This document shows positions 8,246-33,649 of a stretch of DNA of 64,000 nt, in pieces. Source of the DNA: Rhodosporidiobolus odoratus. Taxonomy: Eukaryota; Basidiomycota; Microbotryomycetes; Sporidiobolales; Sporidiobolaceae. Position 1 is the stretch's first letter. Every line of letters begins with the position of its first letter. The DNA lies in contig JAOANU010000005.1 in NCBI GenBank assembly GCA_034387635.1, positions 310,001 through 374,000 on the forward strand, in the 5' to 3' direction. The notes below the pieces were generated by a model. That model had not been told where the DNA came from and made no database searches. It saw only the letters and a program-made list of their open reading frames with translations. The position numbers and the translations under genes were made by a program.

Positions 8246-10115
8246 TTAGGCAGTCGCCTCACCGGCCCCGCCACTACCCGCCTTGGTGACCTCATTCTGC
8301 CAATCGTTCATATCGGCGTCGAGGTCCTCCAGGGTGGCCTTGGGGCGCTCCTCGCCGCCCCTTCCACCACGCCCTCCTCCACGACGACCACCTCCACCAC
8401 GACGACCACCCGCGCCACCACCAGGACCGGAACGACGAGGAGCGGCGGAACCAGAGGCGGCCGCGACGGTACTGGGAGAAGTAACGGAGCAAACGGGTCA
8501 GTACGCAGAAGAGGAGAAGAGCAGAGAATGGAAAGAAAGGGAGAGGACTGACGCAGATGCCCGACCAGTAGCAGCTTTGGGTGCGGTGGGTGCAGGAGCA
8601 ACCCCGAGACGACCGGCGAGACCTCCTCCGACGAGACCGGAGGCGGCTTGGGCGACTTGAAGGGCGCGGGAGGGGTCGACGATGATTTCGACTCGCATGG
8701 GGCGCTCTGAATGGGTGATAATTGAATGTGGTTCGAGCGAACGGAGGTGACGACGGAGGAGGGGAGAGCAGAGCGGAAGGAGTGAGGAGGAAAGAGGTGG
8801 GTTAGGTAATTTGTCCGTAGCTGAACGTTTGGGTTCTTGTCTGTGTGAGGTCGAATAACGACTCGGCCAGCATGCACGAGATGCCTGCAGGGCTTGACTT
8901 TACACTGATCCGTCCCCGGCGCGTTCTTTCGATCCCTGCGCTAAGGGAGCCTCGACCCTTGCCCACACCCTAGCTCGACTGCTTGTCCTCTCGACCACGA
9001 GGCGCGGTGAAGCAGGAGCCTTTCTGCCGTCATCGGCGCCACGAACCATGGAGAGGAGCGTGGGCTCGACTCTCAGACGGAACAGCGGAAGAGGGAGGGA
9101 GCTAGGCTCGACCGATACCTCAACGCTGTGCCCCGACTGCAAAAGTGCGGGGCGGAAGTCGGAAGGGAGCAATGCTCGACCTCCCGCTTCGACGCTGCCG
9201 GCTTGCCATCCGATCGACGAGGAGCGGAGCTCGACTCGGAAGGATGCGGGGTTCGTAGGCCTCGTGGCGCGCTCATCCCGGTGGTCGCGAAGAGCCGGAC
9301 CGGGCGAGGGGGAGGCTGGTCGAGGCAGGGGAGTTGCGGGTGGCGACGGTGCGGCGTTATTGCGCGAGCGGCGGTGTCTCCATGACCGAACCTCAACCCA
9401 GGCGACGTGACGACTATGCGCACGTAAGCGACTCGTCCGCTCGACTCCATCCGGAATCCCCCTCGTGCACCAGCCGGTGCGTGATGTACCCTGGCTCCTC
9501 AAGGAGGGCGATCCAGCTCTTGCGATGTCCGCGAGACGTGCGACGAGGTTTAAACGCAATCGAGGAAAGTCGAAGACGCCGACTCTGCACGAAAGAAAAA
9601 GAAAATGAAGAAAATCACGACCCACTTCCGTCGATCAAGCGCTTGTTGTACTGCTCGTAAGCCTTGGTCGCACTCTCGGCCTTGTTGAAGTGGACGGTGG
9701 CGGTACCCTTGGACTTGCCGTTCGGGCCGTAGGAGAGCTCGACGCGGCGGACGCGGCCGATGGTGGATTCGAAGAGTTCCTGTTTAGAGCAACGTCGCAT
9801 CGTAGAGGCGCATACCGGAAGGGGGAGGTGGAGGGAGTGATGTCAGCGCAAGCATGAGAACTCGAAATGATCAAGAAAGCGCACCCTGATCTGGTTCTCG
9901 TTGACATCGTCGGGCAAGTTGCTGACAATGACCTTGTCTCCAACGTGCACGCTTTTGTTCTGCGCGACGGCGGGGGCAGCCTTGGCCGGTGCGGGAGGAG
10001 CGCCCTCAGCGGCGGGAGCGGGACGGGGAGCCCTGGCTCCACGAGGGTTGCGACGGGGTGCGCGCGACTTGCGCTTCTCCTGAATGACGTCGTCGAGGGG
10101 GCGGTCGATGTTCAT
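8246..10115 (-). CDS. ALY/REF-family mRNA export factor, arm A copy (ALY2a)
   Basis: A second, distinct ALY/REF-type RNA-binding protein, about 254 residues after splicing. The N-terminus MNIDRPLDDVIQEKRK matches the family's N-terminal box (LDDIIK type). A basic R/P/A-rich stretch follows, then one RRM: KVIVSNLPDDVNENQIR, ELFESTIGRVRRVELSYG, KGTATVHFNKAESATKAYEQ, and LIDGKRPMRVEIIVD. After that come a glycine-rich RGG segment and the C-terminal helix TLEDLDADMNDWQNEV, ending GEATA at 8246-8248. The exons are about 10115-9885, 9779-9626, 8706-8552 and 8470-8246. The third intron is 919 bases, far longer than others here, with a GTGGGT donor. An upstream ATG joined through a weak GTCCGC donor would add two residues (MS). 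It differs from its arm B copy by few residues (for example D/E in SNLPDD). It diverges from the MINDY gene at a shared promoter. Confidence 0.88.
8707..9625 (-). promoter_or_regulatory. Exceptionally long conserved intron of ALY2a with GTCGAG motif cluster
   Basis: The intron runs from a GTGGGT donor (9625) to an ACCCATTCAG acceptor (8707), 919 bases, while most introns here are 50-190. Retention adds only SGS after LIDG before a stop, so unspliced RNA would encode a truncated protein. The minus-strand hexamer GTCGAG (CTCGAC on the plus strand) starts at 8951, 8974, 8990, 9065, 9107, 9175 and 9230: seven in 285 bases. The same spacing recurs in the arm B copy. In S. cerevisiae, YRA1 is autoregulated through one unusually long, poorly spliced intron; a similar role here is inference. 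Confidence 0.6.
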
Positions 10116-10677
10116 GGACTGTGAAAGTGCATAGCGAGGTGTGTGAGCTGGAGTGACAGATGAAAGGGGAGCTGGGAGGCGAGCGGACCATGTTGTAGAT
10201 GAGTTGTTGGAGTCTGTGCGAGGGCGAAAGAGTCAGCTGAAGCACTGTGACTACTGGGCGAGTGTTTCTGCACTCCCCTGCGGTGTACGAGGAAGAGATA
10301 AGGCAATGGGAAGGAGAGGGGGCGTGACTGGGTTCTCGAGACGCGGCGAGAGAGGCAGGGGAGTGACTGGGCTTACAGTACGACTTGTGGGAGGGATGGA
10401 AAGAGTCAGGTAACAGCACACACGCGAGATTAGCGGGGGAAGAGAGAACGAGAAAGCGACGAGGACAACAATCAAAGACAACTTTCTAATTCAGTGACAA
10501 TGAGTGGCAGTCTAGCTGTGTATAGGATAGTATGCTCATACGCTACAAGCTAGGCCGCGCCCTTCCCTGTGCTGTGTACAATATTCAGAATTTTTCTTGA
10601 TTTCCCCGGATTTCCTCTGAGATTGAATTTCCATCTTGGCTCTCTATTTCGTGTCAATAACGCTTAAGAGCGAGTAC
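10116..10677. promoter_or_regulatory. Bidirectional promoter, ALY2a / MINDY-a
   Basis: About 560 bases separate the divergent starts of ALY2a and the deubiquitinase, so both are probably driven from here. The segment is clearly recognisable in arm B (31232-31792). It is pyrimidine-rich on the ALY2 sense strand and may hold a spliced 5' UTR for ALY2, with a possible AG acceptor just before the start codon. No TATA box was convincing. Confidence 0.5.
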
Positions 10678-12933
10678 ATGGCAGTTCAAGACGCGCTAGA
10701 AACCTCATCCGCTAATCCCGCAGTGCCTGCAATCCTCCCTGACACGCTCACCCTACGACCCGAGGACCAAGCCCCACCTGCTTCGACTTCGGCGAGCGAG
10801 GACGACAAGGGTCAGCGGGCACACGGACTCGGAAGTCAAGGGCAGAAGAGAATCACGGGAGGGTCTGCGGAGCCGCCTGAGAAGGGGGAAAATCAGAACA
10901 CTGAATCAAAGCAGCGAGAACGTCGATCGTCTCCACCACCAGCTGTCGAGCATGCGACACGGAAAGCAACCCCGGGCGCCGGCGACGAGAGGCGGGCGAC
11001 TGGCGGACTCCCTTCGGTGCTCGGACCTGCATCGTCTGACGAACCGCCTGCCCTTTCTTCCTCAACCTCGCCTTTTCCTCCTGCTACACCCGAACAACTC
11101 GCCCGACAACTAGCCGGCGTCTCCTTCACGGCTTCTACACCATCCCTTGCAGCTTCCTCAGCTTCGAAAACGCCAACTGAGGCAGAAGCGGGCGAGGAAG
11201 AGTGGCCTTTGAAGGAGATATACTGGCCGCCGCTACCACCGACGCCTGAAGAAGCTGCGGCAGGCCTCGCGGGGTTCACGATCGATGAAAGGCTAAGAGT
11301 GAGGGTCATCTGCCAGAATCGGAACGGACCGTGTAGCTTGATCGCGCTTTGTGAGTTGGTCATGCTCCATCCTTGCCTTCCTTCTACCATCGCCCTTTTC
11401 CTGCCCCGTCTCCTCCATCGCCTTCCTCTCCGCTGTCTCGATCCTGTTACCGGACATGGGCAGCACGCTCATACTGTCCCGCTACAGGCAACATCCTCAT
11501 CCTCCGTTCCGCCCTCACTCTCCCATCTCACTTGTCAACCGCCACCTACTCCCTCCTGTCCGCCCTTCTTGCCGACTACTTCCTGTCTCTTCCTCCCTCC
11601 CCTTCTTCGCTCTCCCTTGACGCTGCCCTCTCGATATTGCCAACCACAAGCTCCGGCCTCACCCTCAACCCTCGCTTTTCCGCCATAGATGCGTTCTCCG
11701 GTGCGGGTGAAGCTGGCGAGTTGGCCTTGTTCGAGCTCGCACGAATACCGCTCCTGCATGGCTGGCTGGCGGACAAGCAGAATGCAGAAGAGTTTGAGAT
11801 CATGGCTGGCGAGAAGGGTTGTGTCGACTACGACACTGCGCTGGAAAGGCTGGTCGAAGGCACTGAAATCGCGGGACCCCTTGGGCTGCAATTGGAAACT
11901 GCGGAAGCGGAAGACGTGGTGCTTGCTGAGGAGGTAGAGCGACGAAGTAAATGGTCTGAGGAAGTACAGGAAAAGGTTCGACGAGGTGGGCCTTCTTCTT
12001 TCGCCTGATTCATGCTCGGGCAAAGTAGCTGACGCTTTCTCATTCAACTATGCGATCAGCGACCATCATTGACAGCTTCCTTGACGCCTCTTCCACTCAA
12101 CTTACCTACCCTGGCCTCTTCTCCCTGTCCTCCTCTCCTTTGCTCCCTCCCTCCAGCCTCGCCGCCTTGTTCCGCAACTCTCACCTATCCGTCCTCTATC
12201 GTCGTCCCACGCTTCCTCCCTCTGCGTCATCGGACGCTGTACCCACAAATCACCCCGAGCTGTTCACCCTCGTTACCGATGCTGCTTTCGCTGCAGAGAG
12301 CGAGATAGTCTGGGAAAGTCTGGAGGATGTCGATGGAGGGGCGAGCGAGTTCTATGATGCGGGCCTCAGGAAGGCTAGCACGAGAGGAGGGGACTTTGTG
12401 GCAAGCGCAGGACAGAAGCGGGAAAGAGCGGAAGGGCGGGAAGATAGGACGGGAGGGGAGGAAGCCGAGTACGTGCTTGCCGGCTCTTTCCGTCTCGTCG
12501 CCCCCTCTCCGGCACTCTCCATTCGGCAGACTATACTTCATCGATACGCGGCCATTCACGTGACGACATTCGCGCGATCTTGGTGCACGACTGACCTAGC
12601 CTTCTGCTTCGCAGTCTCGCCCTCGCTCAGCAACTACAAGCAGAAGAAGACTCTCACGCCGCGTCGCTCCGTCGAACTCGAAACGAACGAGACGCACGAG
12701 AAGAGGACTACGCTGAACGGGCCGCCCAACCTCTGCGCCCTGACAACAAGGGAGAGCGGGAAGAGCGAAGAAGACGGCGGTTCGAGGCGGCCGCGGAGCA
12801 TGACCCCGAGAATCTTGTCCCAGACCGGAGGGCAGGAAAAGACGCAGACAGGACGAACAAGAGCAGGCGATCGAGTATGGGCGGGCAGTCAAGAGGAAAG
12901 AAGGAGAAGGAGGACAAGTGTGCGGTGATGTAA
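10678..12933 (+). CDS. MINDY-type (DUF544/FAM63) K48 deubiquitinase, arm A copy, C-terminal CaaX
   Basis: Cysteine-type deubiquitinase of the MINDY family, which trims K48-linked ubiquitin chains. Four exons were traced (10678-11350, 11488-11985, 12060-12468, 12615-12933), giving about 632 residues. A disordered N-terminal third is followed by the catalytic box VICQNRNGPCSLIALCNILIL (oxyanion Gln and catalytic Cys), split by intron 1. Then come IIDSFLDASSTQLTYPGL and FRNSHLSVLYRR (catalytic His region), and NHPELFTLVTDAAF followed by IVWESLEDVDG. The C-terminal part has DLALAQQLQAEED, resembling an MIU ubiquitin-binding helix, a charged region, and the end KCAVM, a CaaX box predicting prenylation and membrane attachment. 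ATG 10678 is the first in frame; an earlier in-frame TTG is not used. All catalytic residues are present, so this copy should be active. It shares a divergent promoter with ALY2a, and PEX3 follows in the same direction. Confidence 0.88.
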
Positions 12934-13143
12934 ATTCGTAGGCTGGTGCACTCGATGTAGGACACCTTAGGTACTGTTGCTGTATACATCATCGCTGTCC
13001 CTAGCTTGTATGTAGACCGTTAGTCTGGCATTCATTCCTCTTCTTCTTCTCACATTTCTCAAACCCGTCGATCTCGTCTAAGCGACTCAGACTCAGCGAG
13101 ACCGACATAGTATACTACCTGTCTGCTGTTGACGGCGGTCACC

Positions 13144-15696
13144 ATGCTCGCGTCGTTGTTGACGCTTCCCTCGGCTGCGTTGAACTCGACAACTTCCTTC
13201 ATCTCTTCAAGACGACGTACGCTACAATGGATTGGGGGAACAGCAGGAGCAGTCTACTGTGGATCTAGATGGATCATGGACAAGGTCGAACAGAGCGCGG
13301 ACAAGGGAACAAGGGAAGGTTGGGCCAGGCAAGAGTAAGTCCCACTCTCGTTCTTTATTCCAGCAGATGTCACCTCTGAATACCCGCGATGCTTTTACAG
13401 CCTCGAGAGAAGGTTCGACATGACCCTGGCCGACGCTAATTACACGACTCGCGCTTTGCTCCCTACCCTTTCTTCCCAAATATCGGCAGAGCTGGATGTC
13501 GAGGCAAGGACAGCCGAGCTAGGTCGACGGGCGCGGGAAGAGCGAGAAGTGAAGATGAGGGCTGAGCAAGGGCGACTGGAGAAGGAGGCGCAAGGGAGGC
13601 TGGAGGAAGAGCCGGAAAGGGGAAAAGCGGGGGAGGATCTCGTCAATGGACAGCGCGAGATCACGACGAATGGCCAGAACGGCACGACCTGCACGGGAGG
13701 CTCAGACGTCACGAACCCGAATGGGTCGACAGAAGAACCTGAGAGCCAGCAGATTACTCCGCTCGCCCCTCGCCCCGCCACACTCGATCCGACTGCCGCA
13801 TCTTTCACTCCATCCTCACTTATTTCTCCTTCGTCGTCCGACTCTTCGCCCCCGCCCTCAGCCACTGTTGACTCCGCCCATGACGAGGTACCCTCAGCGG
13901 ATCGGCCGAACGGCGCAATCGCGCCAGTACATGCTGCTATCGACGGCACAGAACGCTCGGCCACCCCCGGGGCCGAGAAGACAGAAACTGAAGCCGACAA
14001 ACCCTCTTGGGCCTCGGTCGTCAAGCGCAACACCGCTGGGGCGCAGTCCATGACAGATACGCTTGTCTCGAATGGCGCAGTCACAAGTACGCCACCCGAA
14101 GTTGCGCCAGCACCATCGCGCGCTGTCGCAACAACCTCTGAACCAGAACGATCCGCGACTGCAGGTTCCGTGCTACTCAACGGTACGCAAACAGACCGTC
14201 TGGCTGAGGAGCAGACCCCCTTGATAGCTCAGACGAAAGCGGAGCTGTGGTGTGACATCAAGGTTCTGAGTGCGTTTCCTGCCTCGTCTCCTGCGCCGGT
14301 CGATTCGGGCTGCTGACGACATTTCAATGTCTGACCTCGACCTCTTCCTCGCGCCCTGCTGCCTCGCCATGTCTCTGTGCCCTTGCTCGCCGATGCTGTA
14401 TCCTGGCCCATTGTTGCATGCCTCTCGCTCGGCTGAACCGCATCCTCTTCGCAGCCTTCACTCGCCTGCTCAGCACCATCTACACCCTTACCTTTCTCAC
14501 TCTCCTCACTCATACTCAGCTGTCCCTCCTCGGCCGATCATCCTACCTTCACTTCCTCCTCGCTTCTGTACCTCCACCCAGTCCCCGAAGTCAACCGGTC
14601 AAGCCACAGCCGCTGTCACGCAATAGTTTCAAAGACGACCTCGAAAGGATGCTTTTTGCCGAGCAGACGCTCCCGCCGACCGACGCTGAGCAGGAGGAAG
14701 AGAGGGAACGCCAAAGGAAAGAGACGGAGCAACTGTACTTGACGTTCTCGTACTGGCTGTTGCACGACGGGTGGAAGGTTGTCGAAGCAAGGGCCAGGCC
14801 TGCTGTGGAGGCGGTGGTTGGACCGTACGTTGTGCTGCTCCTCCCCATCCCGTTCTTCACATTCTCTACTCGACCTGGGAACTTACTGTCCCTGTCTGTC
14901 ATGCAGAATGGGTCTCAAAACTCAGCTCGTCTATGGCGAGGTGAGTGCCCTTTTTGGCGAGTTGAGGAGGCGTGTCGAGACAGATTTCGAGACCGGTGAA
15001 GCCATCGAGTACGTACCATTCTGTCTCATGCTCGTCCGCTAGGATACAGCGCACGAATGGCGGATAAGCGCCTGACACGCTTTGGATCTTCAGTTTCTCC
15101 GCTGCCTTTTTACCGCCAACCCCTGCGCTCGAAGTGCAAACCCTCATCGCGGGCGGTTCCTACGTGCCGTTTTCCTCGCCATCGACAACTCCTTCCTCCC
15201 CTTCGTACCCACCCTTCCCGTCCTCTCCTTCACCTTCGCCCATGACCCCACCCCTCCGAACCCTTCTCTCCGAAACCGCCGATACCCTCTCCTCCCCTGA
15301 CTCCGCCCTCATCCGGTCCCTCCTCCTTGACCGACTCTTCTCCCTCGTTATCGAACAGCTAGAGCCCGCGTTCGCTGGGAGAAAAGAAAGTGCAGCAGAT
15401 GACGGAGGCAGAGGAGCGAGATTTGAGGATGTTACAGAGAGGACGGCTAGGGTGGTTGATGTATTGCCGGTGTTGACGAGGTTGTCAGGGAATGGAGAGG
15501 GGAGCTTGCTGGGAGGCGAGGAAGGGAGGCAGGTGGTCGAGGTGAGTCTGCGTTCATTGATTGAACCTTCTCAGGCTGCTCGTACTGACACCTTTCTACG
15601 CTGTGTCTGCAGGCCCTCACCTCTGTATCTGAGTTGTGCGATCTCTGTGCTGTGATGTATAGTAGCTGGGATCCGGACGGTGTCCGAATCGCATGA
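13144..15696 (+). CDS. PEX3: Peroxisomal biogenesis factor 3, arm A copy
   Basis: PEX3 is the peroxisomal membrane anchor that docks PEX19 and its membrane-protein cargo. The N-terminus has a basic stretch and one membrane segment (SSRRRTLQWIGGTAGAVYCG), then the family box LERRFDMTLADANYTTRALL followed by PTLSSQISAELDVE. A long low-complexity insert is followed by KAELWCDIKVL, FTRLLSTIYTLTFLTLLTHT, QLSLLGRSSYL, YWLLHDGWKVVEARARPAVE and TQLVYGEVSALFGELRRRVE. The C-terminal exons end in ALTSVSELCDLCAVMYSSWD then PDGVRIA and TGA 15694-15696. Exons include 13144-13334, 13401-14269, 14455-14824 and 14907-15008. Intron 2 is 185 bases and contains an 80-base segment absent from the other copy. The last residues differ from arm B because repeat similarity ends there. 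It converges on DDX41 with about 125 bases between stops. Confidence 0.88.
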
Positions 15697-15820
15697 ATCG
15701 AGGCTATTACAACAGGAGGCGGGGCGCGAACCAAATACAGTGAGAGAGAGAGAGCCACACGAGGGCCAGAATGACACCCGTAGGCTAGAATCACAGAAGA
15801 TGCGGATCCGCCGGTGCAGC

Positions 15821-18913
<3,093 letters not shown>

Positions 18914-19043
18914 GGCCTAGCTAGTCTGTACAAGCTCTCGATGAGAACGAGGAGAGTGACAAGAGGAAAGAGGGAATTCAACTGATGAAACTATTCCTGA
19001 CTTGTTACAACTCACTGTACAGCCTACAAAGGGTCTGCGAGCT

Positions 19044-22425: not shown

Positions 22426-23346
22426 CTACTCAAATCCGTAGATATGGGCTGCTCTCCTCCCCATCCACGGGACATGAGCGAGGGCATTCTCAAAGAACGT
22501 CTCATCTTCAAAGCCATGCGGCTGGACAACATGAACCTCGTTGCGATGGACGGCAGCTGTAGGTGGAACAGGCGGCTGAAGCAGTCGTGTACACCAGCCA
22601 TGGAGCAATGGCAGGTGAGGTAGGAGATTCTTGTCAGTCGTGGTTTCGAACACTCGAGTCATCCCGAAGTCTTCGTGACATACCCGCGAATCCGTGTAGG
22701 CATTGTATGCTTCTGCAGAGGTAGTGCGTAAGTCTGAGCTGCTTGCAGCACACGTGAGCAATCAGAAAGCGGCTCACCTTGAAGCAGAAACTCAAAGTAA
22801 CGCCTGAAGGATTGCTGAATGACCACAAACTCATGAGCCAGACTTTCTCTGGTAGATCGTTCGCGGGTGAATCAAGGGGAGACTGCAGGATGAGCTCACA
22901 TATTCCTCCGTCAGGAAGGCATACCCATCTAGCCCCGCTTCACGCACTCCTGTCCAAAGGTAGTCACACAATCTGCTGCCACTACTGATGACACTTCTGT
23001 CTGTCGCTGGATCCTTTTGCTGGTGTTGTGGCAGGCGGAGGAAGGCGCTGTAGTCGGTGGGGTCATGCGCCTTGGCGACCTTCTCCACTGTTGGCCTCCA
23101 CGGCAGCGAGAACAGTCCTGCCCATTCATCTGCTCTGATTCGATCCGGCAGTTCTTCGAAGTAGGAGGCGGCTACACGCGCCTGATCGCCAATAGGGTAG
23201 TCTCGATTGATGTAGGCTCCGGTCAGGGAGCTGAGGCGCTCGCAGAGATGTCTGAACTCGGAGTATGGCGCTTTTGCGGAGGCTGCTTGCCGGTAGCGGT
23301 GCTGTTGATCTTGCCAGAACTCATGGTCAATAGCCATCCTTCGCAT
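22426..23346 (-). CDS. Orphan protein of unknown function
   Basis: I do not recognise a family. ATG 23346 starts a 171-codon frame opening MRRMAIDHEFWQDQQHRYRQ and containing YSEFRHLCERLSSLTGAYIN, YFEELPDRIRADEWAGLFSL and CDYLWTGVREAGLDGYAFLT. The sequence upstream of the ATG is CT-rich, as in a 5' leader. A GTGAGC donor after TEEY can join CAATCC after ATTCAG, giving QSFRRYFEFLLQ. Later exons are uncertain; a plausible last exon ends FFENALAHVPWMGRRAAHIY followed by GFE at 22426-22428. It is soluble-looking, rich in aromatic and charged residues, without signal peptide or membrane segment. Protein-like composition supports a real gene, but the 3' half should be treated as provisional. Confidence 0.45.
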
Positions 23347-24586
23347 CTCGGGATAGGCTGTGTTGGACTGAGGGACTATGGGGACTTGGGGAGGTCAGAA
23401 GGAGAAGAGGAAAGGAGAGCCGGCGGAGGCATCGGCGGAGCAGAAAAGCCCCTCTCTTCTTGGTCCGTGCACCTCGTGCGCAAAGCGCCTCACTGCTCCC
23501 TGGCTGCCCGAGTTGAGCTCGTGGGAGGCAAAGGCTCTTGGGGAGCTCACGCAGAGTCAGTCAGAGGACAGAATTGAGCGGGAAACCGTGCCGAGATAGA
23601 AAAGGCAAAGGACGCGTCGAGTTCCATGACCCGGAAGATGCATCGCATGCTATACTGATCCATCGATGCGGCCTACAACATTGACACCGCTGTCGACCCA
23701 GATTGCACTCGTAACGACAACGGGAGGACGGCGAGTGGAAGCGCGATGAGGCTGATGCGAGCCCCAGGCGGTACGGGACTAGGTACAAGGGCGCTGCGGG
23801 TCTCTGGAAGAACTGGTAGGAGATGCGGCAAGCTAGCAAGATGCTGTTCAGTCACAAGCGGAAGAGGGCTGCCCTTCAGCAACTTCCTAGCCCTCCTTCG
23901 TAAGGCTTCACCCGAGTATCGGGCAATGCGCCGCTATTGCCTGCATTCTGCGCTATCGTTTACGCCCAGCCGGAACAACGCGCTCGACCTGCTCGACCTT
24001 CCCGACCTCGCAACTGATGAAGATCGAAACGACCTCGGAACGCTTCAGGAAGACTGGACCCGCCCTGTCAGTGCCATCGACGTAACAATGAGTTAGGGAG
24101 TCGCGCGCGGACCGGGTCAAGCTGAATGCTGGCTGAATGGAGGCACCTGCTCTCCCTTGCCGCCTCCCGCTTCCCTTTCCACGTGAAGCATGGCAAGTCA
24201 AGCAGCGCCGGATCCTGAATCTATGAGCTGTCGGGTAAGGGGCGCGCGCAGTGTGCTGGGGACGGTCGTGAGGAGGGTGTTCGGCGCGTGTCGCTTCTTT
24301 TCACATTGACAAGGCGAAAGCTGCTCGTCAGGCGGGCTCGCAAAGCCAACTTTTCAGCTGAGCGTATACAGCCGACGTGCGGCTCCAGAATACGCGAGTC
24401 TTGATGAGCAGCGGGAACGCAGCTCCGCACCGCACAGGTCACCTTTCAGGAGTACCCTTCGTCTCCTCATCGCCTCGACCCAGACTCCTCCAAGCTCTTC
24501 TTCCTCTCCTTCGTCACTTGCTCGCTTTTGTCCTCGTCTCTTTCTCCCTGCACCCACGGCGTCCCTCCCGTCGAGCCTCGCGCAAC
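23347..24586. other. 1.2-kb gap with a doubtful small ORF
   Basis: Divergent promoters of the orphan gene and of the serine-rich protein should lie at the two ends; CT-rich leader sequence precedes both starts. In the middle, an ATG at 23746 opens 116 codons on the plus strand, ending DLATDEDRNDLGTLQEDW followed by TRPVSAIDVTMS. It has no known domain and overlaps equally long frames on the minus strand, so I do not call it a gene. Confidence 0.35.
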
Positions 24587-25914
24587 ATGGTCCGCACCTC
24601 CTTCCTCGTCGCCTCCGCCGCCGTCTTCGCCGCCCAGACCCTCGCAGCCCCTAGCATACAGAGCCCTGCCCTGTACACCTGCACTCCGGCTAGCTACCAG
24701 TACACTTGCGAGTGCGTACGGATTTCTGCTCCTGATTGACTCTTCTACCCATCGCGAATTCAAGCGAAAACAGCTCTGACCTCGAGCCTCGTTCCCCATC
24801 CTCGCTTGCACCGACCCTTCACGTTCACTGTCTGATTCTCCGTACAGCGCTCCCCCTTGCACGGTCGTGATCCGTCCTGCCGACAACGCCGCTACGTCCA
24901 TCGCTTCTCTTGGCCAAGTCAACGAAGCCGAGGGAGCTATCAGCTGGTCACCCAACGTTGCCGAGGGCACCTCAGTCACGGCCTACATAACGAATGCTGC
25001 AGGTCAGGTTGGCAACAACTCGCCTACCTCGGTTGCCAGTGGCACAACCGACTGGTAAATTTCCCTTGTGCTGCGGACTCTACGCCCTGCTTCGCCGGCA
25101 AACTAACTGATGCTTGTAACATCCTCGCAGCATCGGGGCTTCCTCGTTAGCTGGTGGCGACTCATCTTCCGCATCCTCGTCGTGAGCTCCGAGTTGTCGT
25201 TCTCATTACACCTGATCTCCGTCATTTACGAAACTTACTTTTAACTACAGCGGCGAATCTTCCTCATCGTGCGCAATTTCCCATCGTGACCAAAGAACAC
25301 GTGTTCATTCCGCCTTTCCTTCCACGAATGCAGGGCCGCCGCATCCTCCAATGGTTCTTCTTCGGCTACGGGCTCTTCTGCCGCTTCCTCGGCCAGCTCG
25401 TACGTTGTCTCTCATTCGTTCGTCCTCGACTGTTCTGCCGTCGGAAAAACACGTGTCATGATCGCCGACTGATGACTTTGCCTGCGTTTCCACTTTGCAA
25501 ATAGCGCCGCCTCCTCCGCTAGCTCATCCGGCGCATCCAGGGTCTCTTCCATCTCTTCTGCCGCGTCCTCCGCCGTCTCGACTGCCACGTAAGCCTTTTC
25601 CTCTCGGTGCCCTCCATTCCAACTTTTTCCTTCTTCCCCTCCAGAGGTGCCGTACCACAGCTAACCGTGACTTTGTTATCGATGCAGCGCTATCTCGAGC
25701 TCGAGCGATGCCGCTGCTTCGGCGTCAGCTTCGGCTGACCCCGAGTCTGGAGCTGGCAAGCTCGCTGCTGGGGGGTGAGTCTTTTCACCGTTCAACCAAG
25801 ACCTTGCTTCAATCGCGCGACCTCCTTTATCTGCGGTCGAACTGACGAGATACTCTCCTTCCACGCCAAAGCCTCCTCGCCGGTGTTCTTGCCGTCGTCG
25901 CTGCTCTCGCCTAA
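24587..25914 (+). CDS. Secreted GPI-anchored Ser/Ala-rich cell-wall protein 1
   Basis: It starts MVRTSFLVASAAVFAAQTLA, a clear signal peptide with cleavage after ALA. A small disulfide-type domain follows: LYTCTPASYQYTC then PPCTVVIRPADNAATSIASL, AEGAISWSPNVAEGTSVTAY, ITNAAGQVGNNSPTSV. This resembles the Kre9/Knh1-like N-terminal domain of fungal wall proteins. The second half is nearly all Ser, Ala and Gly, spread over short exons, and ends AAGGLLAGVLAVVAALA, a hydrophobic tail after small residues, as in GPI-anchor signals. Stop is TAA 25912-25914. At least six introns cut the low-complexity part, all in phase 2. Two paralogues lie at 38983-40078 and 40844-41945. This member sits in the spacer and converges on PEX3-b. 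The role (wall structure) is inferred. Confidence 0.8.
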
Positions 25915-26287
25915 GCCACTCCGCCGTCACCGGCGCCAGACGAGCGTAGATTTTCCGAAGTTCTGCGATACCTCAAACTTGCTTTCCATCTAGCCTAATC
26001 TCGCATTACCCTTTCCGCATACTCGCAAACGGACTAGCAGCACCTCGTTCACTTCTCCATCGTATGTCCATTTTACAGTCTCTTGTCGTTCGTTTCACCT
26101 TCCTTTTTATCGTGATTATTCCCTTCCTTCGTTCCTTTCCGGTCTTTCTTGCAAATCAGTCTGTCGCCATAGTCTTTCCTTCGTCGGTTTGCGGACAGCT
26201 TGAGAGTGCCAGTAGAAGACGAAGGGAAAACGGAAGTCCAGCGGCTGGACAACAACACGTACATGATGCAATACAGAACCTCATGGG
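25915..26287. other. Convergent 3' region before arm B
   Basis: About 370 bases between the stop of the serine-rich protein and the stop of PEX3-b. T-rich stretches near 26090-26130 fit 3' UTR. No gene was seen. Inverted-repeat similarity begins just to the right, at about 26306. Confidence 0.45.
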
Positions 26288-28773
26288 CTACGACTGCAGG
26301 ACTTCCGGGTCCCAGCTACTATACATCACAGCGCAGAGATCGCGCAACTCAGATTCAGAGGTGAGGGCCTGCAGACACAGCGTAGAAAGGTGTCAGTACG
26401 AGCAGCCTGAGAAGGTTCAATCAATGAACGCAGACTCACCTCGACCACCTGCCTCCCTTCCTCGCCTCCCAGCAAGCTCCCCTCTCCATTCCCTGACAAC
26501 CTCGTCAACACCGGCAATACATCAACCACCCTAGCCGTCCTCTCTGTAACATCCTCAAATCTCGCTCCTCTGCCTCCGTCATCTGCTGCACTTTCTTTTC
26601 TCCCAGCGAACGCGGGCTCTAGCTGTTCGATAACGAGGGAGAAGAGTCGGTCAAGGAGGAGGGACCGGATGAGGGCGGAGTCAGGGGAGGAGAGGGTATC
26701 GGCGGTTTCGGAGAGAAGGGTTCGGAGGGGTGGGGTCATCGGCGAAGGTGAAGGAGAGGACGGGGAGGGTGGGTACGAAGAACAGGAAGGAATTCTCGGT
26801 GGCGCAGCGGGAGGTACGTAGGAGCCGCCGGAGATGAGGGTCTGCACTTCGAGCGCAGGGGTTGGCGGTAAGAAGGCAGCGGAGAAACTGAAGATCCAAA
26901 GCGTGTCAGGCGCTTATCCGCCATTTGTACGCTGTATCATCCGTACGCTGTATCCTAGCGGACGAGCATGAGACAGAATGCTACGTACTCGATGGCTTCA
27001 CCGGTCTCGAGATCGGTCTCGACACGCCTTCTCAACTCGCCAAAAAGAGCACCCATCTCGCCATAGACGAGCTGAGTCTTGAGACCCATTCTGCATGACA
27101 GACAGGGACAGTAAGTTCCCAGGTCGAGTACAGAATGTGAAGAACGGGACGGGGAGGAGCAGCACAACGTACGGTCCAACCACCGCCTCCACAGCAGGCC
27201 TGGCCCTTGCTTCGACAACCTTCCACCCGTCGTGCAACAGCCAGTACGAGAACGTCAAGTACAGTTTCTCCGTCTCTTTCCTTTGGCGTCCTCTCTCTTC
27301 CTCCTGCTCAGCGTCGGTCGGCGGGAGAGTCTGCTCGGCAAAGAGCATCCGTTCGAGGTCGTCTTTGAAACTGTTGCGTGACAGCGGCTTTGGCGTGACC
27401 GGTTGACTTCGGGGACTGGGTGGAGGTACAGAAGCGAGGAGGAAGTGAAGGTAGGATGATCGGCCGAGGAGGGACAGCTGAGTATGAGTGAGGAGAGTGA
27501 GCAAGGTAAGGGTGTAGATAGTGCTGAGCAGGCGAGTGAAGGCTGCGAAGAGGATGAGGTTCAGCCGAGCGAGAGGCATGCAACAATGGTCCAGGATACA
27601 GCATCGGCGAGCAAGGGCGTAGAGACATGGCGAGGCAGGAAACGCACTCAGAACCTTGATGTCAGACCACAGCTCCGCTTTCGTCTGAGCTATCAAGGGG
27701 GTCTGCTCCTCAACCAGACAGTCTGTTTGCGTACCGTTGAGTAGCACGGAACCTGCAGTCGCGGATCGTTCCGGTTCAGAGGCTGTTGCGACAGCGCGCG
27801 ATGGTGCTGGCGCAACTTCGGGTGGCGTAGTTGTGACTGCGACGTTCGAGACAAGCGTATCTGTCATAGACTGCGCCCCAACGGTGTTGCGCTTGACGAC
27901 CGAGGCCCAAGAGGGTTTGTCGCCTTCACTTTCTGTCTTCTCGGCCCCGCGGGTGGCCGAGCGTTCTGTGCCGTCGATAGCAGAATGTACTGGCGCGATT
28001 GCGCCGTTCGGCTGCCCCGCTGAGGGTACCTCGTCATGGGCGGAGTCAACGGCGGCTGAGAGCGGGGGCGAAGAGTCGGACGAAGAAGGAGGGCTGAGCG
28101 AGGATGGCGTGAAAGATGCGGCAGTCGGATCGAGTGTGGCGGGGCGAGGCGCGAGCGGAGTAATCTGCCGGCTCTCAGGTTCTTCTGTCGACCCATTCGG
28201 GTTCGGGACGTCTGAGCCTCCCGTGCAGGTCGTGCCGTTCTGGCCATTCGTCGTGATCTCGCGCTGTCCATTGACGAGATCCTCCCCCGCTTTTCCCCTT
28301 TCCGGCTCTTCCTCCAGCCTCCCTTGCGCCTCCTTCTCCAGTCGCCCTTGCTCAGCCCTCATCTTCACTTCTCGCTCTTCCCGCGCCCGTCGACCTAGCT
28401 CGGCTGTCCTTGCCTCGACATCCAGCTCTGCCGATATTTGGGAAGAAAGGGTAGGGAGCAAAGCGCGAGTCGTGTAATTAGCGTCGGCCAGGGTCATGTC
28501 GAACCTTCTCTCGAGGCTGTAAAAGCATCGCGGGTATTCAGAGGTGCCATCTGCTGGAATAAAGAACGAGAGTGGGACTTACTCTTGCCTGGCCCAACCT
28601 TCCCTTGTTCCCTTGTCCGCGCTCTGTTCGACCTTGTCCATGATCCATCTAGATCCACAGTAGACTGCTCCTGCTGTTCCCCCAATCCATTGTAGCGTAC
28701 GTCGTCTTGAAGAGATGAAGGAAGTTGTCGAGTTCAACGCAGCCGAGGGAAGCGTCAACAACGACGCGAGCAT
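26288..28773 (-). CDS. PEX3: Peroxisomal biogenesis factor 3, arm B copy
   Basis: Second full PEX3 gene, inverted relative to the arm A copy. The membrane anchor and LERRFDMTLADANYTTRALL box are the same as in arm A. The core is intact: KAELWSDIKVL, FTRLLSTIYTLTLLTLLTHT, QLSLLGRSSYL, LHDGWKVVEARARPAVEAVV. Differences are scattered substitutions, concentrated in the low-complexity insert and near QTLISGGSYVP. Intron 2 lacks 80 bases present in arm A and is now 105 bases, a multiple of three without an in-frame stop, so retention would add 35 residues rather than truncate. The C-terminus departs from copy A after MYSSWDPE and ends VLQS at TAG (26288-26290), because the repeat ends inside the last codons. 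No disabling lesion was seen, so both copies look functional. Confidence 0.87.
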
Positions 28774-28981
28774 GGTGACCGCCGTCAACAGCAGACAGGT
28801 AGTATACTATGTGTCTCGCTGAGTCTGAGTCGCTTAGACGAGATCGACGGGTTTGAGAAATGTGAGAAGAAGAAGAGGAATGAATGCCAGACTAACGGTC
28901 TACATACAAGCTAGGGACAGCGATGATGTATACAGCAACAGTACCTAAGGTGTCCTACATCGAGTGCACCAGCCTACGAAT

Positions 28982-31231
28982 TTACATCACCGCACACTTG
29001 TCCTCCTTCTCCTTCTTTCCTCTTGACTGCCCGCCCATACTCGATCGCCTGCTCTTGTTCGTCCTGTCTGCGTCTTTTCCTGCCCTCCGGTCTGGGACAA
29101 GATTCTCGGGGTCATGCTCCGCGGCCGCCTCGAACCGCCGTCTTCTTCGCTCTTCCCGCTCTCCCTTGTTGTCAGGGCGCAGAGGTTGGGCGGCCCGTTC
29201 AGCGTAGTCCTCTTCTCGTGCGTCTCGTTCGTTTCGAGTTCGACGGAGCGACGCGGCGTGAGAGTCTTCTTCTGCTTGTAGTTGCTGAGCGAGGGCGAGA
29301 CTGCGAAGCAGAAGGCTAGGTCAGTCGTGCACCAAGATCGCGCGAATGTCGTCACGTGAATGGCCGCGTATCGATGAAACATAGTCTGCTGAACGGAGAG
29401 TGACGGAGAGGGGGCGGCGAGACGGAAAGAGCCGGCAAGTACGTACTCGGCTTCCTCCCCTCCCGTCCTGTCTTCCCGCCCTTCCGCTCTTTCCCGCTTC
29501 TGTCCTGCGCTTGCCACAAAGTCCCCTCCAGTCGTGCTAGCCTTCCTGAGGCCTGCATCATGGAACTCGCTCGCCCCTCCATCGACATCCTCCAGACTCT
29601 CCCAGACTATCTCGTTCTCTGCAGCGAAAGCAGCATCGGTAACGAGGGTGAACAGCTCGGGGTGATTAGTGGGTACAGCGTCCGATGACGCAGAGGGAGG
29701 AAGCGTGGGACGACGATAGAGGACGGATAGGTGAGAGTTGCGGAACAAGGCGGCGAGGCCGGAGGGAGGGAGCAAAGGAGAGGAGGACAGGGAGAAGAGG
29801 CCAGGGTAGGTAAGTTGAGTGGAAGAGGCGTCAAGGAAGCTGTCAATGATGGTCGCTGATCGCATAGTTGAATGAGAAAGCGTCAGCTACTTTGCCCGAG
29901 CATGAATCAGGCGAAAGAAGAAGGCCCACCTCGTCGAACCTTTTCCTGTACTTCCTCAGACCATTTACTTCGTCGCTCTACCTCCTCAGCAAGCACCACG
30001 TCTTCCGCTTCCGCAGTTTCCAATTGCAGCCCAAGGGGTCCCGCGATTTCAGTGCCTTCGACCAGCCTTTCCAGCGCAAGGTCGTAGTCGACACAACCCT
30101 TCTCGCCCGCCATGATCTCCAACTCTTCTGCATTCTGCTTGGCCGCCAGCCAGCCATGAAGGAGAGGTATCTGCGCGAGCTCGAACAAGGCCAACTCGCC
30201 AGCTTCACCCGCACCGGAGAACGCATCTATGGCGGAAAAGCGAGGGTTGAGGGTGAGGCCGGAGCGGGTGGTTGGCAATATCGAGAGGGCAGCGTCAAGG
30301 GAGAGCGCAGAAGGGGAGGTGGGAAGAGACAGGAAGTAGTCTGCAAGAAGGGCCGACAGGAGGGAGTAGGTGGCGGTCGACAAGTGAGATGGGAGAGTGA
30401 GGGCGGAACGGAGGATGAGAATGTTGCCTGTAGCGGAAAAGCATCAGCGAGGTGCCATAATCCCGCAGTAATCCCGAGACAGCGAGGGGAAAGGCGACTG
30501 GGGAGACAGGGTAGAAGGCCGCGAGGGAGGAAAAAAGGATGGAACATGGCCAACATACAGAGCGCAATCAAGCTACATGGTCCGTTCCGATTCTGGCAGA
30601 TGACCCTCACTCTTAGCCTTTCATCGATCGTGAACCCCGCGAGGCCTGCCGCAGCTTCTTCAGGCGTCGGTGGTAGCGGCGGCCAGAATATCTCCTTCAA
30701 AGGCCACTCTTCCTCGCCCGCTTCTGCCTCAGTTGGCGTTTTCGAAGCTGAGGAAGCTGCAGGAGGCGATGTAGAAGCCGTGAAGGAGACGCCGGCTAGT
30801 TGTCGAGCGAGTTGTTCGGGTGTAGCAGAAGGAAAAGGCGAGGTTAAGGAAGAAAGGGCAGGCGGTTCGTCAGACGATGCAGCTCCGAGCACCGAAGGGG
30901 GTCCGCCAGTCGACCGCCTCTCGTCGCCAGCGCCCGGGGTTGCTTTCCGTGTCGCATGCTCGACAGCTGGTGGTAGAGACGATCGTCGTTCTTGCTGCTT
31001 CGATTCAGCGTTCTGATCTTCCCCCTTCTGAGGCGGCTCCGCAGACCCTCCCGTGAGTCTCTTGTGCCCTTGATTTTCGGGTCCGTCTGTCCGCTGGCCA
31101 TTGTCGTCCTCGCTCGCCGAAGTCGAAGCAGGTGGGGCTTGGTCCTCTGGTCGTGAGCGGAGCGCATCGGGAAGGATTACAGGCGAGGCGGGACCAGCGG
31201 TTGAGGTTCCTAGCGCGTCTTGACATGCCAT
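28982..31231 (-). CDS. MINDY-type deubiquitinase, arm B copy, C-terminal CaaX
   Basis: Second copy of the MINDY deubiquitinase, starting MACQDALGTSTAGPASP at ATG 31231 and ending KCAVM at 28982-28984. The catalytic box VICQNRNGPCSLIAL, the LTYPGL helix, FRNSHLSVLYRR and NHPELFTLVTDAAF are intact. In the roughly 140 residues from IIDSFLDAS onward only four substitutions were counted against copy A, and the last exon is the same in translation. The disordered N-terminal third differs more (for example LRSRPEDQAPP against LTLRPEDQAPP). Intron 1 has diverged strongly but keeps a GTATGT donor and a GCTACAG acceptor. Conserved catalytic residues with a drifting N-terminus suggest both copies are under selection. 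It shares a divergent promoter with ALY2b. Confidence 0.87.
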
Positions 31232-31792
31232 GTACTCGCTCTGAAGCGTTGTTAGATCGAAATAGAGAGCCAAGATGAAAATTCAATCTCAGAGGAAATC
31301 CTGGAAAATCAAGAAAAATTCTGAGTATTGTACAAAGCACAGGGAGGGGCGCGGTCTAGTTTGTAGCGTATGAGCCGACTGTCCTAAGCACAGCTAGACT
31401 GCCGCTCGCTCTACTGAATCAGAAAGTTGTCTTTGATTGTTGTCCTCGTCGCTCTCTCGTTCTCTCTTTCCCCGCTAATCTCGCTTGTGTGCTGTTACCT
31501 GACTCATTCTATCCCTTGCCCAAGTCGTACTGTAAGCCCAGTCATCCCCCTGCTTCTCTCGCCACGTCTCGAGAACCCAGTCACGCCCCCTCTCTTTCCC
31601 ATTCCCTTATATCTTCCTCGTACACCGCAGGGGAGTGCAGAAACACTCGCCCAGTAGTCACAGTGCTCCAACTGACTCGTCGACTCTCGCGCAGACTCCA
31701 ACAACTCATCTACAACATGGTCCGCTCGCCTCCCAGCTCCCCTTTCATCTCTCACTTCAACTCACACACCTCGCTATGCACTTTCACAGTCC
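31232..31792. promoter_or_regulatory. Bidirectional promoter, MINDY-b / ALY2b
   Basis: About 560 bases between divergent starts, matching the arm A promoter in length and largely in sequence. On the ALY2 sense strand it is pyrimidine-rich, with a CTTTCACAG acceptor-like site just before the ALY2 start, pointing to an intron in the 5' leader. Confidence 0.5.
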
Positions 31793-33649
31793 ATGAACAT
31801 CGACCGACCGCTCGACGACGTCATCCAGGAGAAGCGCAAGTCGCGCGCACCCCGTCGCAACCCTCGTGGAGCCAGGGCTCCCCGTCCCGCTCCCGCCGCT
31901 GAGGGCGCTCCTCCCGCACCGGCCAAGGCTGCCCCCGCCGTCGCGCAGAACAAGAGCGTGCACGTCGGAGACAAGGTCATTGTCAGCAACCTGCCCGAGG
32001 ATGTCAACGAGAACCAGATCAGAGTGCGCTTTCTTGATCATTCCGAATTCTCATGCTTGCGCTGACATCACCCCCTCCATCTCCCCCTTCCGGTATGCGC
32101 CTCTACGATGCGACGTTGCTCTTGACAGGAACTCTTCGAATCCACCATCGGCCGCGTCCGCCGCGTCGAGCTCTCCTACGGCCCGAACGGCAAGTCCAAG
32201 GGTACCGCCACCGTCCACTTCAACAAGGCCGAGAGTGCGACCAAGGCTTACGAGCAGTACAACAAGCGCTTGATCGACGGAAGTGGGTCGTGATTTTCTT
32301 CATTTCTTTTTCTTTCGTGCAGAGTCGGCGTCTTCGACTTTCCTTGACCGCGCGCAAACTTCGTCGCACGTCTCGCGGACATCGCAAGAGCTGGATCGCC
32401 CTACTTGAAGAGCCAGGGTGTATAACGCGCCGGCCGGGGCACGAGGGGGATTCCGAATGGAGCCGAGCGGACGAGTCGCTTACGTGCGCATAGTCGTCAC
32501 GTCGCCTGGGTTGAGGTTCGGTCATCGAGACACCGCCGCTCGCGCAATAACGCCGCACCGTCGCCGCCCGCAACTCCCCTGCCTCGACCAGCCTCCCCCT
32601 CTCTCGGTCCGGCTCTTCGCGACCACCGGGATGAGCGCGCCACGAGGCCCACGAACCCCGCATCCTTCCGAGTCGAGCTCCGCTCCTCGTCGATCGGATG
32701 GCAAGCCGGCAGCGTCGAAGCGGGAGGTCGAGCATTGCTCCCTTCCGACTTCCGCCCCGCACTTTCGCAGTTGGGGCACAGCGTTGAGGGATCGGTCGAG
32801 CCTAGCTCCCTCCCTCTTCCGCTGTTCCGTCTGAGAGTCGAGCCTACGCTCCTCTCCATGGTTCGTGGCGCCGGTGACGGCAGCAAGGCTCCTGCTTCAC
32901 CCGCCTCGTCGTCGAGAGGACAAGCAGTCGAGCTAGGGTGTCGGCAAGGGTCGAGGCTCCCTTAGCGCAGGGATCGAAAGAACGCGCAGGGGACGGATCA
33001 GTGCAAAGTCAAGCCCTGCAGGCATCTCGTGCATGCTGGCCGAGTCGTTATTCGACCTCACACAGACAAGAACCCGAACGTTCAGCTGCGGACAAATTAC
33101 CTAACCCACCTCTTTCCTCCTCACTCCTTCCGCTCTGCTCTCCCCTCCTCCGTCGTCACCTCCGTTCGCTCGAACCACCCATTCAGAGCGCCCCATGCGA
33201 GTCGAAATCATCGTCGACCCCTCCCGCGCCCTTCAAGTCGCCCAAGCCGCCTCCGGTCTCGTCGGAGGAGGTCTCGCCGGTCGTCTCGGGGTTGCTCCTG
33301 CACCCACCGCACCCAAAGCTGCTACTGGTCGGGCCTCTGCGTCAGTCCTCTTTCCTTTTCTTTCCATTCTTTGCTCTTCTCCTCTTCTGCGAACTGACCC
33401 GTGTGGTCCGTTACTTCTCCCAGTACCGTCGCGGCCGCCTCTGGTTCCGCCGCTCCTCGTCGTTCCGGTCCTGGTGGTGGCGCTGGCGGTCGTCGCGGTG
33501 GAGGTGGTCGTCGTGGAGGAGGACGTGGTGGAAGGGGCGGGGAGGAGCGACCCAAGGCTACCCTGGAGGACCTCGACGCCGATATGAACGATTGGCAGAA
33601 CGAGGTTAGTAATGCAGGGAACGGTGCTGCGGGTGAGGCGACTGCTTAA
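31793..33649 (+). CDS. ALY/REF-family mRNA export factor, arm B copy (ALY2b)
   Basis: Second copy of the ALY2 gene: exons 31793-32023, 32129-32282, 33187-33340 and 33424-33649, giving 254 residues. It has the N-terminal box MNIDRPLDDVIQEKRK, a basic R/P/A stretch, one RRM (KVIVSNLPEDVNENQIR, FESTIGRVRRVELSYG, KGTATVHFNKAES, then LIDGKRPMRVEIIVD across the long intron), a glycine/arginine-rich linker and the C-terminal helix TLEDLDADMNDWQNEV. Copy A and copy B differ in the last residues (NEVSNAGNGAAGEATA here, NEVTKAGSGGAGEATA in A). The 904-base third intron with its GTGGGT donor is kept. Both copies look functional. With ALY1, the window holds three ALY-family genes. Confidence 0.88.
32283..33186 (+). 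promoter_or_regulatory. Long conserved intron of ALY2b with GTCGAG motif cluster
   Basis: Same intron as in arm A, 904 bases here. GTCGAG starts at 32672, 32727, 32795, 32837, 32911, 32927 and 32950, mirroring the arm A order and 285-base span. Translations of this noncoding segment in the two arms differ at only a few positions per hundred, much closer than for MINDY intron 1, so it is either functionally constrained or recently converted. Retention gives a stop within three codons. Confidence 0.6.

What the first reader, a model, noticed from the sequence alone, without database searches (positions are those of the whole stretch)
8246..33649. Large imperfect inverted repeat carrying two full sets of three housekeeping genes
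Seen: 8246-15676 and 26306-33649 are reverse-oriented copies with ALY2, MINDY deubiquitinase and PEX3, around a 10.6-kb single-copy spacer with five genes. All six copies keep frames, splice sites and catalytic residues. PEX3 and ALY-type factors are normally single genes in fungi (established), so two linked inverted copies are unusual. Large inverted repeats can drive inversion of the spacer, hairpin instability, or concerted evolution. Inference: a stable palindrome-like structure shaping this locus, comparable to sex-chromosome palindromes.
Basis: partly seen in the sequence, partly recalled or inferred. Interest (0 to 1): 0.88.

Follow-up and report, generated by a model that had tools for sequence, protein, structure and literature searches.

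The report
Yeast gene-bearing inverted repeat, partly homogenised
A red yeast chromosome carries three everyday genes twice, as mirror-image 7.4-kb copies around a unique stretch, and the two copies appear to overwrite each other from time to time; this resembles a known flip/flop locus of baker's yeast but lies in a distant group of fungi and holds housekeeping genes.

Summary
The inverted repeat is real: 8246-15677 and 26304-33649 align in opposite orientation at 95% around a 10.6-kb spacer. All six gene copies (ALY2, MINDY, PEX3) have complete models and all 9 indels between the arms are noncoding. PEX3 and MINDY matches above cut-off lie only in these arms. The spacer and flank pieces tested have no second near copy and one STE3 locus was found, so a haplotype artefact is unlikely. 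Divergence is patchy: 1 mismatch in 1172 bases at 12537-13710, about 30% around MINDY intron 1, more uneven than shuffles; this points to arm-to-arm gene conversion. Nearest relative found: Rhodosporidiobolus odoratus. Its strain JCM 11641 has a PEX3 with the right arm's C-terminus, truncated, on a 14,694-bp contig; the matching interval here is 14,676 bp, which suggests the same structure there, though its DDX41, MINDY, ALY2 and second PEX3 were not found. The right arm's inner junction looks ancestral; that the left arm is the derived copy is less certain. Closest known: the Saccharomyces flip/flop locus. The sex-palindrome comparison fails on identity and on any sex link found. A new member of a known kind.

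The parts
8246..15677 (+). Left arm of the inverted repeat (L); judged the derived copy
   Evidence: Self-BLASTN 95% to 33649-26304 on the other strand; its PEX3 C-terminus differs from that of R. odoratus
26304..33649 (-). Right arm of the inverted repeat (R); its inner junction is judged ancestral
   Evidence: PEX3 C-terminus WDPEVLQS identical to R. odoratus PEX3
15678..26303 (.). Spacer, single-copy where tested
   Evidence: 15700-18950 and 19000-23900 give one genomic match each; 23901-26303 not searched (one search was not scored)
8246..10115 (-). ALY2, left copy: exons 8246-8471, 8553-8706, 9626-9779, 9885-10115
   Evidence: 254 aa, RRM_1 and FoP_duplication
10678..12933 (+). MINDY deubiquitinase, left copy: exons 10678-11350, 11488-11985, 12060-12468, 12615-12933; ends KCAVM (CaaX-like)
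   Evidence: 632 aa, MINDY_DUB E 3.1e-65
13144..15696 (+). PEX3, left copy: exons 13144-13334, 13401-14269, 14455-14824, 14907-15008, 15094-15541, 15613-15696; the last six residues (after WDP) are not shared with R
   Evidence: 687 aa, Peroxin-3 E 2.5e-95
31793..33649 (+). ALY2, right copy: exons 31793-32023, 32129-32282, 33187-33340, 33424-33649
   Evidence: 254 aa; dN/dS to L 0.07
28982..31231 (-). MINDY deubiquitinase, right copy: exons 28982-29300, 29447-29855, 29930-30427, 30559-31231
   Evidence: 632 aa; dN/dS to L 0.22 in residues 206-491, 1.05 in residues 1-205
26288..28773 (-). PEX3, right copy: exons 26288-26368, 26440-26887, 26989-27090, 27173-27542, 27648-28516, 28583-28773
   Evidence: 686 aa; dN/dS to L 0.42 over the first 681 codons
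12537..13710 (.). Strongest recent conversion tract (left-arm coordinates): 1 mismatch in 1172 aligned bases across an intron, MINDY 3' end, the intergenic region and PEX3 5' end
   Evidence: longest neutral identical run 406 sites (12537-13369), longer than in any of 5000 permutations
11351..11487 (.). Unconverted patch: MINDY intron 1; neutral divergence 31% in the bin 11259-11510
15821..18913 (-). Spacer gene: DDX41-type DEAD-box helicase (11 exons)
   Evidence: DEAD and Helicase_C on a first model; fuller model, 84-87% to four Rhodosporidiobolus DEAD-box proteins
19044..19844 (+). Spacer gene: PF10306 protein (FLILHELTA; name recalled)
   Evidence: tblastn of R. odoratus JCM11641_006538, precomputed Pfam PF10306
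20024..21841 (+). Spacer gene: aldo/keto reductase (AKR)
   Evidence: Aldo_ket_red; R. odoratus JCM11641_006537 matches
24587..25778 (+). Spacer gene: serine-rich secreted protein (model may be short at its 3' end)
   Evidence: Gene finder only; resembles the 39-44 kb genes by eye
6370..7938 (+). Left flank: second ALY/REF-type gene (ALY1), convergent to ALY2-L
   Evidence: FoP_duplication on its 3' part; R. odoratus JCM11641_004845 (RRM and FoP) matches along it
35714..38494 (+). Right flank: alpha/beta hydrolase (Abhydrolase_3)
   Evidence: R. odoratus JCM11641_001316

Best explanation
A 7.4-kb segment holding ALY2, MINDY and PEX3 was copied in inverted orientation about 10.6 kb away, between ALY1 and DDX41, in an ancestor probably shared with Rhodosporidiobolus odoratus. 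Since then, non-allelic homologous recombination between the two arms has copied tracts of one arm over the other (gene conversion), so that the arms evolve partly in concert while purifying selection keeps all six genes intact. By the established recombination mechanism, a minority of such events should resolve as crossovers and invert the spacer. Shown here: the structure, intactness, genome-wide copy number of PEX3 and MINDY, and patchy divergence. Inferred: which arm is older, the presence of the structure in R. odoratus, the conversion mechanism itself, and spacer inversion. No special function of the palindrome is claimed; extra dosage of the three genes is the likeliest reason, if any, for keeping both.
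For: Structure and identity. PEX3 and MINDY above cut-off only in these arms; the left arm as DNA query finds only the two arms; the left flank and the spacer and right-flank pieces searched give no second near copy. Patchiness: 3578 neutral sites, 220 differences, longest identical run 406 against a permutation maximum of 215; p stays at 0.0002, the floor, without MINDY intron 1 and the outer 50 bp, and is 0.0004 with fourfold sites alone. 0 of 9 indels coding, P = 0.00012. R. odoratus: truncated PEX3 with the R-arm C-terminus, start point mapping to both arms 14,676 bp apart against a contig of 14,694 bp; AKR and PF10306 protein on that contig, ALY1/PhyH and the hydrolase on two others. R. 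odoratus PEX3 is about as close to L (48 of 549 differ) as to R (53 of 549), and L-R is 44 of 549, although its C-terminus is R-type. ALY1 is within 2-5 tags of DDX41 or the PF10306 gene on one contig in 4 of the 8 other strains that have tags for both (R. azoricus, R. ruineniae, S. johnsonii, Rh. paludigena), which fits an ancestral order without the left arm.
Against: No raw reads were available, so local assembly or polishing error could homogenise arms. In R. odoratus no second PEX3, no MINDY, no ALY2 and, against expectation, no DDX41 protein was returned (length filters apply), so its left arm is inferred only from contig length and breakage. L-R PEX3 distance is not clearly smaller than the distance to R. 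odoratus, so a duplication at about the time of speciation with little conversion in that part is possible. The inner edge is sharp, 3 mismatches in the last 50 shared bases, unlike the outer edge. Synteny rests on locus-tag numbers: ALY1 and DDX41/PF10306 are on different contigs in the other 4 of 8 strains (R. poonsookiae, R. microsporus, S. roseus, S. salmoneus), and MINDY is close to the hydrolase by tag in only 1 of 4 strains (R. lusitaniae; not R. poonsookiae, R. microsporus, R. azoricus). R. nylandii and R. microsporus have DDX41 nearer MINDY than the PF10306 gene, the opposite order to R. poonsookiae.
Confidence: 0.68

Rival explanations
1. The duplication is a by-product of a chromosomal inversion of the spacer made through staggered double-strand breaks: filling in the stagger leaves one inverted copy of the arm at each end of the inverted segment.
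For: It gives exactly arm-spacer-inverted arm in one event; the mechanism is documented as a source of duplications in Drosophila (PMC4965816, abstract and start seen). The spacer genes lie in opposite orders relative to MINDY in R. nylandii/R. microsporus and R. poonsookiae.
Against: It predicts ALY1 ancestrally next to ALY2 and DDX41 next to the right flank; instead ALY1 lies within 2-5 tags of DDX41 or the PF10306 gene in 4 of 8 strains, and MINDY/ALY2 lie 12-14 tags from the right-flank hydrolase in R. lusitaniae. The other strains are uninformative, and the outer junction sequence of a relative was not available.
Confidence: 0.17
2. A duplication near the time of the species split with no gene conversion; the patchiness only reflects different constraint and mutation rate along the arm.
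For: R. odoratus PEX3 is about equally distant from L and R, as such a duplication would give.
Against: Identical tracts include introns, intergenic DNA and synonymous sites alike; fourfold sites alone have a run of 168, p = 0.0004, with a largest permuted run of 196. Bins of neutral sites range from 0 to 31%.
Confidence: 0.12
3. Assembly or haplotype artefact: two alleles joined as an inverted repeat.
For: 95% identity is in the range of divergent alleles; no reads could be inspected.
Against: Spacer and flank pieces tested have no second near copy; one STE3 locus in the genome, as in a haploid (inference); divergence is a mosaic, not uniform; R. odoratus contigs, assembled independently, appear to break at the same place.
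Confidence: 0.04

Closest known systems
Saccharomyces chromosome XIV flip/flop (FF) region (PMC9731477; abstract, section 10 and search passages read)
   Same: Two gene-bearing inverted repeats (4.2 kb there) around a unique block of genes (24 kb there); arms homogenised, attributed to gene conversion; retained across related species there.
   Different: [quoted passage not shown] Here the arms are 95% and patchy, the genes are housekeeping (PEX3, MINDY, ALY), inversion is untested and one sister species is only inferred to share it.
Caenorhabditis gene-bearing inverted repeats (PMC1803023; abstract, first part of Results and Discussion read)
   Same: Inverted paralogous gene pairs with intergenic DNA kept alike within a species.
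   Different: Short spacers (126 and 414 bp in the two main examples) and arms up to 100% identical; the authors favour selection for structure. Here the spacer is 10.6 kb with its own genes.
Primate X-chromosome palindromes (PMC8981503; passages read)
   Same: Large inverted repeats with arm-to-arm conversion and unique spacers.
   Different: Sex-linked, median arms 37 kb at 99.953% identity; this one is shorter, 95% and has no sex link found.
Staggered-break inversion duplications in Drosophila (PMC4965816; abstract and start read)
   Same: Would produce the same arm-spacer-inverted arm layout.
   Different: Those flank inversions; here the flank gene order, as far as tags tell, favours a one-sided inverted copy.

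Membership tests
Flip/flop-type homogenised inverted repeat | Two gene-bearing arms in inverted orientation around a unique multigene spacer | tested here: met
   (spacer 23901-26303 not searched genome-wide)
Flip/flop-type homogenised inverted repeat | Arms homogenised by gene conversion | tested here: met
   Clustered identity at neutral sites longer than in any of 5000 permutations; one genome only, no reads
Flip/flop-type homogenised inverted repeat | Same structure and boundaries in related species | tested here: inconclusive
   R. odoratus contig length 14,694 vs 14,676 expected, R-type PEX3 C-terminus; left arm, DDX41, MINDY and ALY2 proteins not seen there
Flip/flop-type homogenised inverted repeat | Paralogues within a genome closer than orthologues between species | tested here: inconclusive
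   PEX3: L-R 44, L-odoratus 48, R-odoratus 53 of 549
Flip/flop-type homogenised inverted repeat | Spacer found in both orientations | not testable with these tools
   Single assembly; congeners show both orders of DDX41 and the PF10306 gene relative to MINDY, which is only suggestive
Sex-chromosome-type palindrome | Arm identity above 99% | tested here: not met
   95%
Sex-chromosome-type palindrome | Linked to a sex or mating-type locus | tested here: not met
   The only STE3 locus found (two adjacent matches) is on contig C17; the window is on C5. HD locus not tested; contigs may belong to one chromosome
Staggered-break inversion duplication | The two ancestral junctions lie on different arms | tested here: inconclusive
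   R inner junction looks ancestral; outer junction judged only by locus-tag proximity

The most novel reading that the evidence does not exclude
The repeat is an old, genus-level flip/flop system of Rhodosporidiobolus: arm-to-arm recombination has repeatedly inverted the DDX41-PF10306-AKR block, and species for which one arm is seen, with opposite spacer orders (R. nylandii and R. microsporus against R. poonsookiae), lost an arm after a flip. Conversion-maintained inverted repeats would then have arisen independently in ascomycete and basidiomycete yeasts, here on housekeeping genes, with arm boundaries worn back to the ends of the coding sequences (exactly the ALY2 stop codon, and five or six codons before the PEX3 stop).
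Probability: 0.18. Interest if true: 0.7.

Novelty: new member of a known kind. Interest (0 to 1): 0.5.

Why it matters
Salzberg et al. (PMC9731477) write that they have not identified the pressure that keeps the Saccharomyces repeats homogeneous (passage). A second case in a distant yeast lineage, carrying ordinary housekeeping genes and not sporulation genes, would show whether such repeats need special genes at all. It also warns that PEX3, MINDY and ALY orthology and copy number in this genus may be blurred by conversion and by collapsed short-read assemblies.

Tried and rejected
Sex-locus link: one STE3 locus on another contig, so not pursued. RNA or tRNA at the breakpoints: none reported in the window by ARAGORN (bacterial code) or Rfam at gathering cut-offs. 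Target-site duplication or shared sequence at the four junctions: only short matches of E 0.08 or worse. Haplotype artefact: judged unlikely. R. azoricus MINDY on an 801-bp contig as a second collapsed repeat: inconclusive. C-terminal residues of distant species as a test of which arm is ancestral: L (DGVRIA) and R (EVLQS) are both unlike them, so only R. odoratus was used. The L/R mosaic of R. odoratus PEX3 is weaker than it first looked: p = 0.001 with all 37 informative sites, 0.025 without the five beyond the breakpoint; and under a late duplication such sites only tell which copy changed. Literature searched; the flip/flop paper came.
Full report
Observation. A self-comparison of the window finds one large inverted repeat: 8246-14286 against 33649-27631 and 14359-15677 against 27638-26304, both at 95%. 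The break between the two pieces is an 80-base indel in a PEX3 intron. The window is contig C5, 310001-374000, of a 24.8-Mb, 45-contig genome. With the left arm as query the genome search returns only the two arms. Pfam models for PEX3 and MINDY match above cut-off only in these two places; ALY was not searched by family. The left flank (other matches are short, 73-83%), spacer pieces 15700-18950 and 19000-23900 and right flank 33700-38800 (one 31-base match elsewhere) have no second near copy. Spacer 23901-26303 was not searched (one search was not scored).

Genes. With a small gene finder and hand-fitted splice sites I obtained complete models for ALY2 (254 aa), MINDY (632 aa) and PEX3 (687 aa in L, 686 in R) in both arms, identified by Pfam on the left copies. 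All nine indels between the arms lie in the 2723 noncoding bases and none in the 4708 coding bases (P = 0.00012). dN/dS between copies is 0.07 for ALY2, 0.53 for MINDY (0.22 in residues 206-491, the deubiquitinase domain, 1.05 in residues 1-205) and 0.42 for PEX3. So the cores look constrained, while the less structured parts drift (that they are disordered is inferred).

Edges. The shared sequence stops exactly at the ALY2 stop codon on the outside and six codons (L) or five codons (R) before the PEX3 stop on the inside. Divergence is high at the outer edge (14 of the last 50 bases) and low at the inner edge (3 of 50). Beyond the edges I found only short chance-level matches. That both edges fall at ends of coding sequences is unexplained; wear of unselected flanks in an old repeat is one reading, for the outer edge at least.

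Conversion. At 3578 neutral sites (fourfold, intron, intergenic) 220 differ, but not evenly: bins of 150 sites range from 0 to 31%. The longest run without a difference is 406 neutral sites (12537-13369), against a maximum of 215 in 5000 permutations. Without MINDY intron 1 and the outer 50 bases the result holds (406 against a maximum of 286), and fourfold sites alone give a run of 168, p = 0.0004, where the largest permuted run is 196. At 12537-13710 there is 1 mismatch in 1172 bases, across intron, coding, intergenic and coding sequence. Selection on any one kind of site cannot easily explain this; copying between the arms can. Raw reads were not available, so a polishing artefact is not excluded; Salzberg et al. 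examined this worry for the Saccharomyces repeats and found independent assemblies in agreement (PMC9731477 section 10).

Relatives. The closest PEX3 in the protein database is a partial protein of Rhodosporidiobolus odoratus JCM 11641, 92% identical by BLASTP over 79% of the query, on a 14,694-bp contig; that it sits at a contig end is judged from 'partial' and its missing N-terminus. It ends WDPEVLQS as the right arm does, not WDPDGVRIA as the left arm does. A PF10306 protein (006538) and AKR (006537) are on the same contig; ALY1 and PhyH (004845, 004846) are on a 19,264-bp contig and the right-flank hydrolase (001316) on a 116,358-bp contig. This is what a collapsed inverted repeat would leave. 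Against it, no R. odoratus DDX41, MINDY, ALY2 or second PEX3 was returned (proteins outside the length range 0.55-1.75 of the query are not seen); DDX41 should have been on the contig.

Age and direction. PEX3 differs between L and R at 44 of 549 positions, between L and R. odoratus at 48, and between R and R. odoratus at 53, so the duplication is about as old as the species split, or older and partly homogenised. The R. odoratus protein matches L at 21 and R at 16 of the 37 sites that decide; these are clustered (p = 0.001), but only weakly if the five residues beyond the breakpoint are left out (p = 0.025). Locus tags, R. odoratus apart: of 8 strains with tags for both ALY1 and DDX41 or the PF10306 gene, 4 have them close on one contig (R. 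azoricus 4920/4915, S. johnsonii 3895/3899, Rh. paludigena JCM10292 7200/7204, R. ruineniae 894/892) and 4 on different contigs (R. poonsookiae, R. microsporus, S. roseus, S. salmoneus). Of 4 strains with tags for both MINDY and the hydrolase, R. lusitaniae has them 12 apart (2004/1992, with ALY2 at 2006) and R. poonsookiae, R. microsporus and R. azoricus have them on different contigs. PEX3 and MINDY have adjacent tags in R. poonsookiae and Rh. araucariae, the two strains with both. The linked cases fit the present order minus the left arm, so I take L as the inserted copy, with moderate confidence. R. nylandii (AKR 5856, PF10306 5857, DDX41 5858, MINDY 5863) and R. microsporus (PF10306 1081, DDX41 1082, MINDY 1084) have the block in the other order from R. 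poonsookiae (DDX41 258, PF10306 259, PEX3 265, MINDY 266). Local inversions have therefore occurred; whether an inverted repeat caused them is unknown.

Comparison with known systems. The Saccharomyces flip/flop region (PMC9731477; found; abstract, section 10 and passages read) is the nearest: 4.2-kb gene-bearing inverted repeats, 24-kb spacer, homogenised by conversion, spacer inverting repeatedly, age at least 17 million years. Gene-bearing inverted repeats with high within-species identity are also reported in Caenorhabditis (PMC1803023) and primate X chromosomes (PMC8981503). Among basidiomycetes, divergent pheromone-gene copies in the Cryptococcus P/R locus are suggested to act as inverted repeats, with conversion as a possible repair route (PMC12510652, passages). 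The present case shares the flip/flop architecture and the conversion signature; inversion and conservation across species remain unproven. The sex-palindrome comparison fails: identity is 95%, and the only STE3 locus found is on contig C17.

Verdict. A real, intact, probably old inverted duplication undergoing arm-to-arm gene conversion, in a fungus close to Rhodosporidiobolus odoratus. It is a new member of a known kind, interesting mainly as a possible independent counterpart of the Saccharomyces flip/flop locus.

Noticed in passing
8707-9625 and 32283-33186: Both ALY2 copies keep a very long intron (919 and 904 nt; median of 102 predicted introns in the window 94.5 nt). S. cerevisiae YRA1, an ALY-family gene, is auto-regulated through an unusual intron (PMC4818039, passages read), so this may be a counterpart that buffers the doubled dose.
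   Followed up: partly
8707-9625 and 32283-33186: The long ALY2 intron holds 8 (L) and 7 (R) copies of GTCGAG on the transcript strand (CTCGAC there: 1 each); the whole window has 105 of either form, so about 1.5 would be expected per intron by simple proportion.
   Followed up: partly
12933 and 28982: MINDY ends KCAVM in both copies, and CVVM, CLVM or CVVS in six full-length relatives aligned: a conserved CaaX-like end (prenylation inferred, recalled).
   Followed up: no
38976-41964: Tandem pair of serine-rich secreted-protein genes at 72-79% DNA identity, with look-alikes (by eye) at 42.9-44.4 kb and, in the spacer, at 24.6-25.8 kb: perhaps a small local family.
   Followed up: no
6370-7938: A second ALY/REF-type gene (ALY1) lies directly beside the left arm, convergent with ALY2-L, so three ALY-type genes sit in this window.
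   Followed up: partly
R. azoricus JCM11251_002953 (P0051): MINDY of R. azoricus is a partial gene on an 801-bp contig while its DDX41, ALY1 and hydrolase lie on contigs of 39-87 kb; it could be another collapsed duplicate.
   Followed up: partly
33957-34541: A small gene model that looks like QCR8 (cytochrome bc1 subunit 8; recalled, not searched) follows ALY2-R at the right edge.
   Followed up: no
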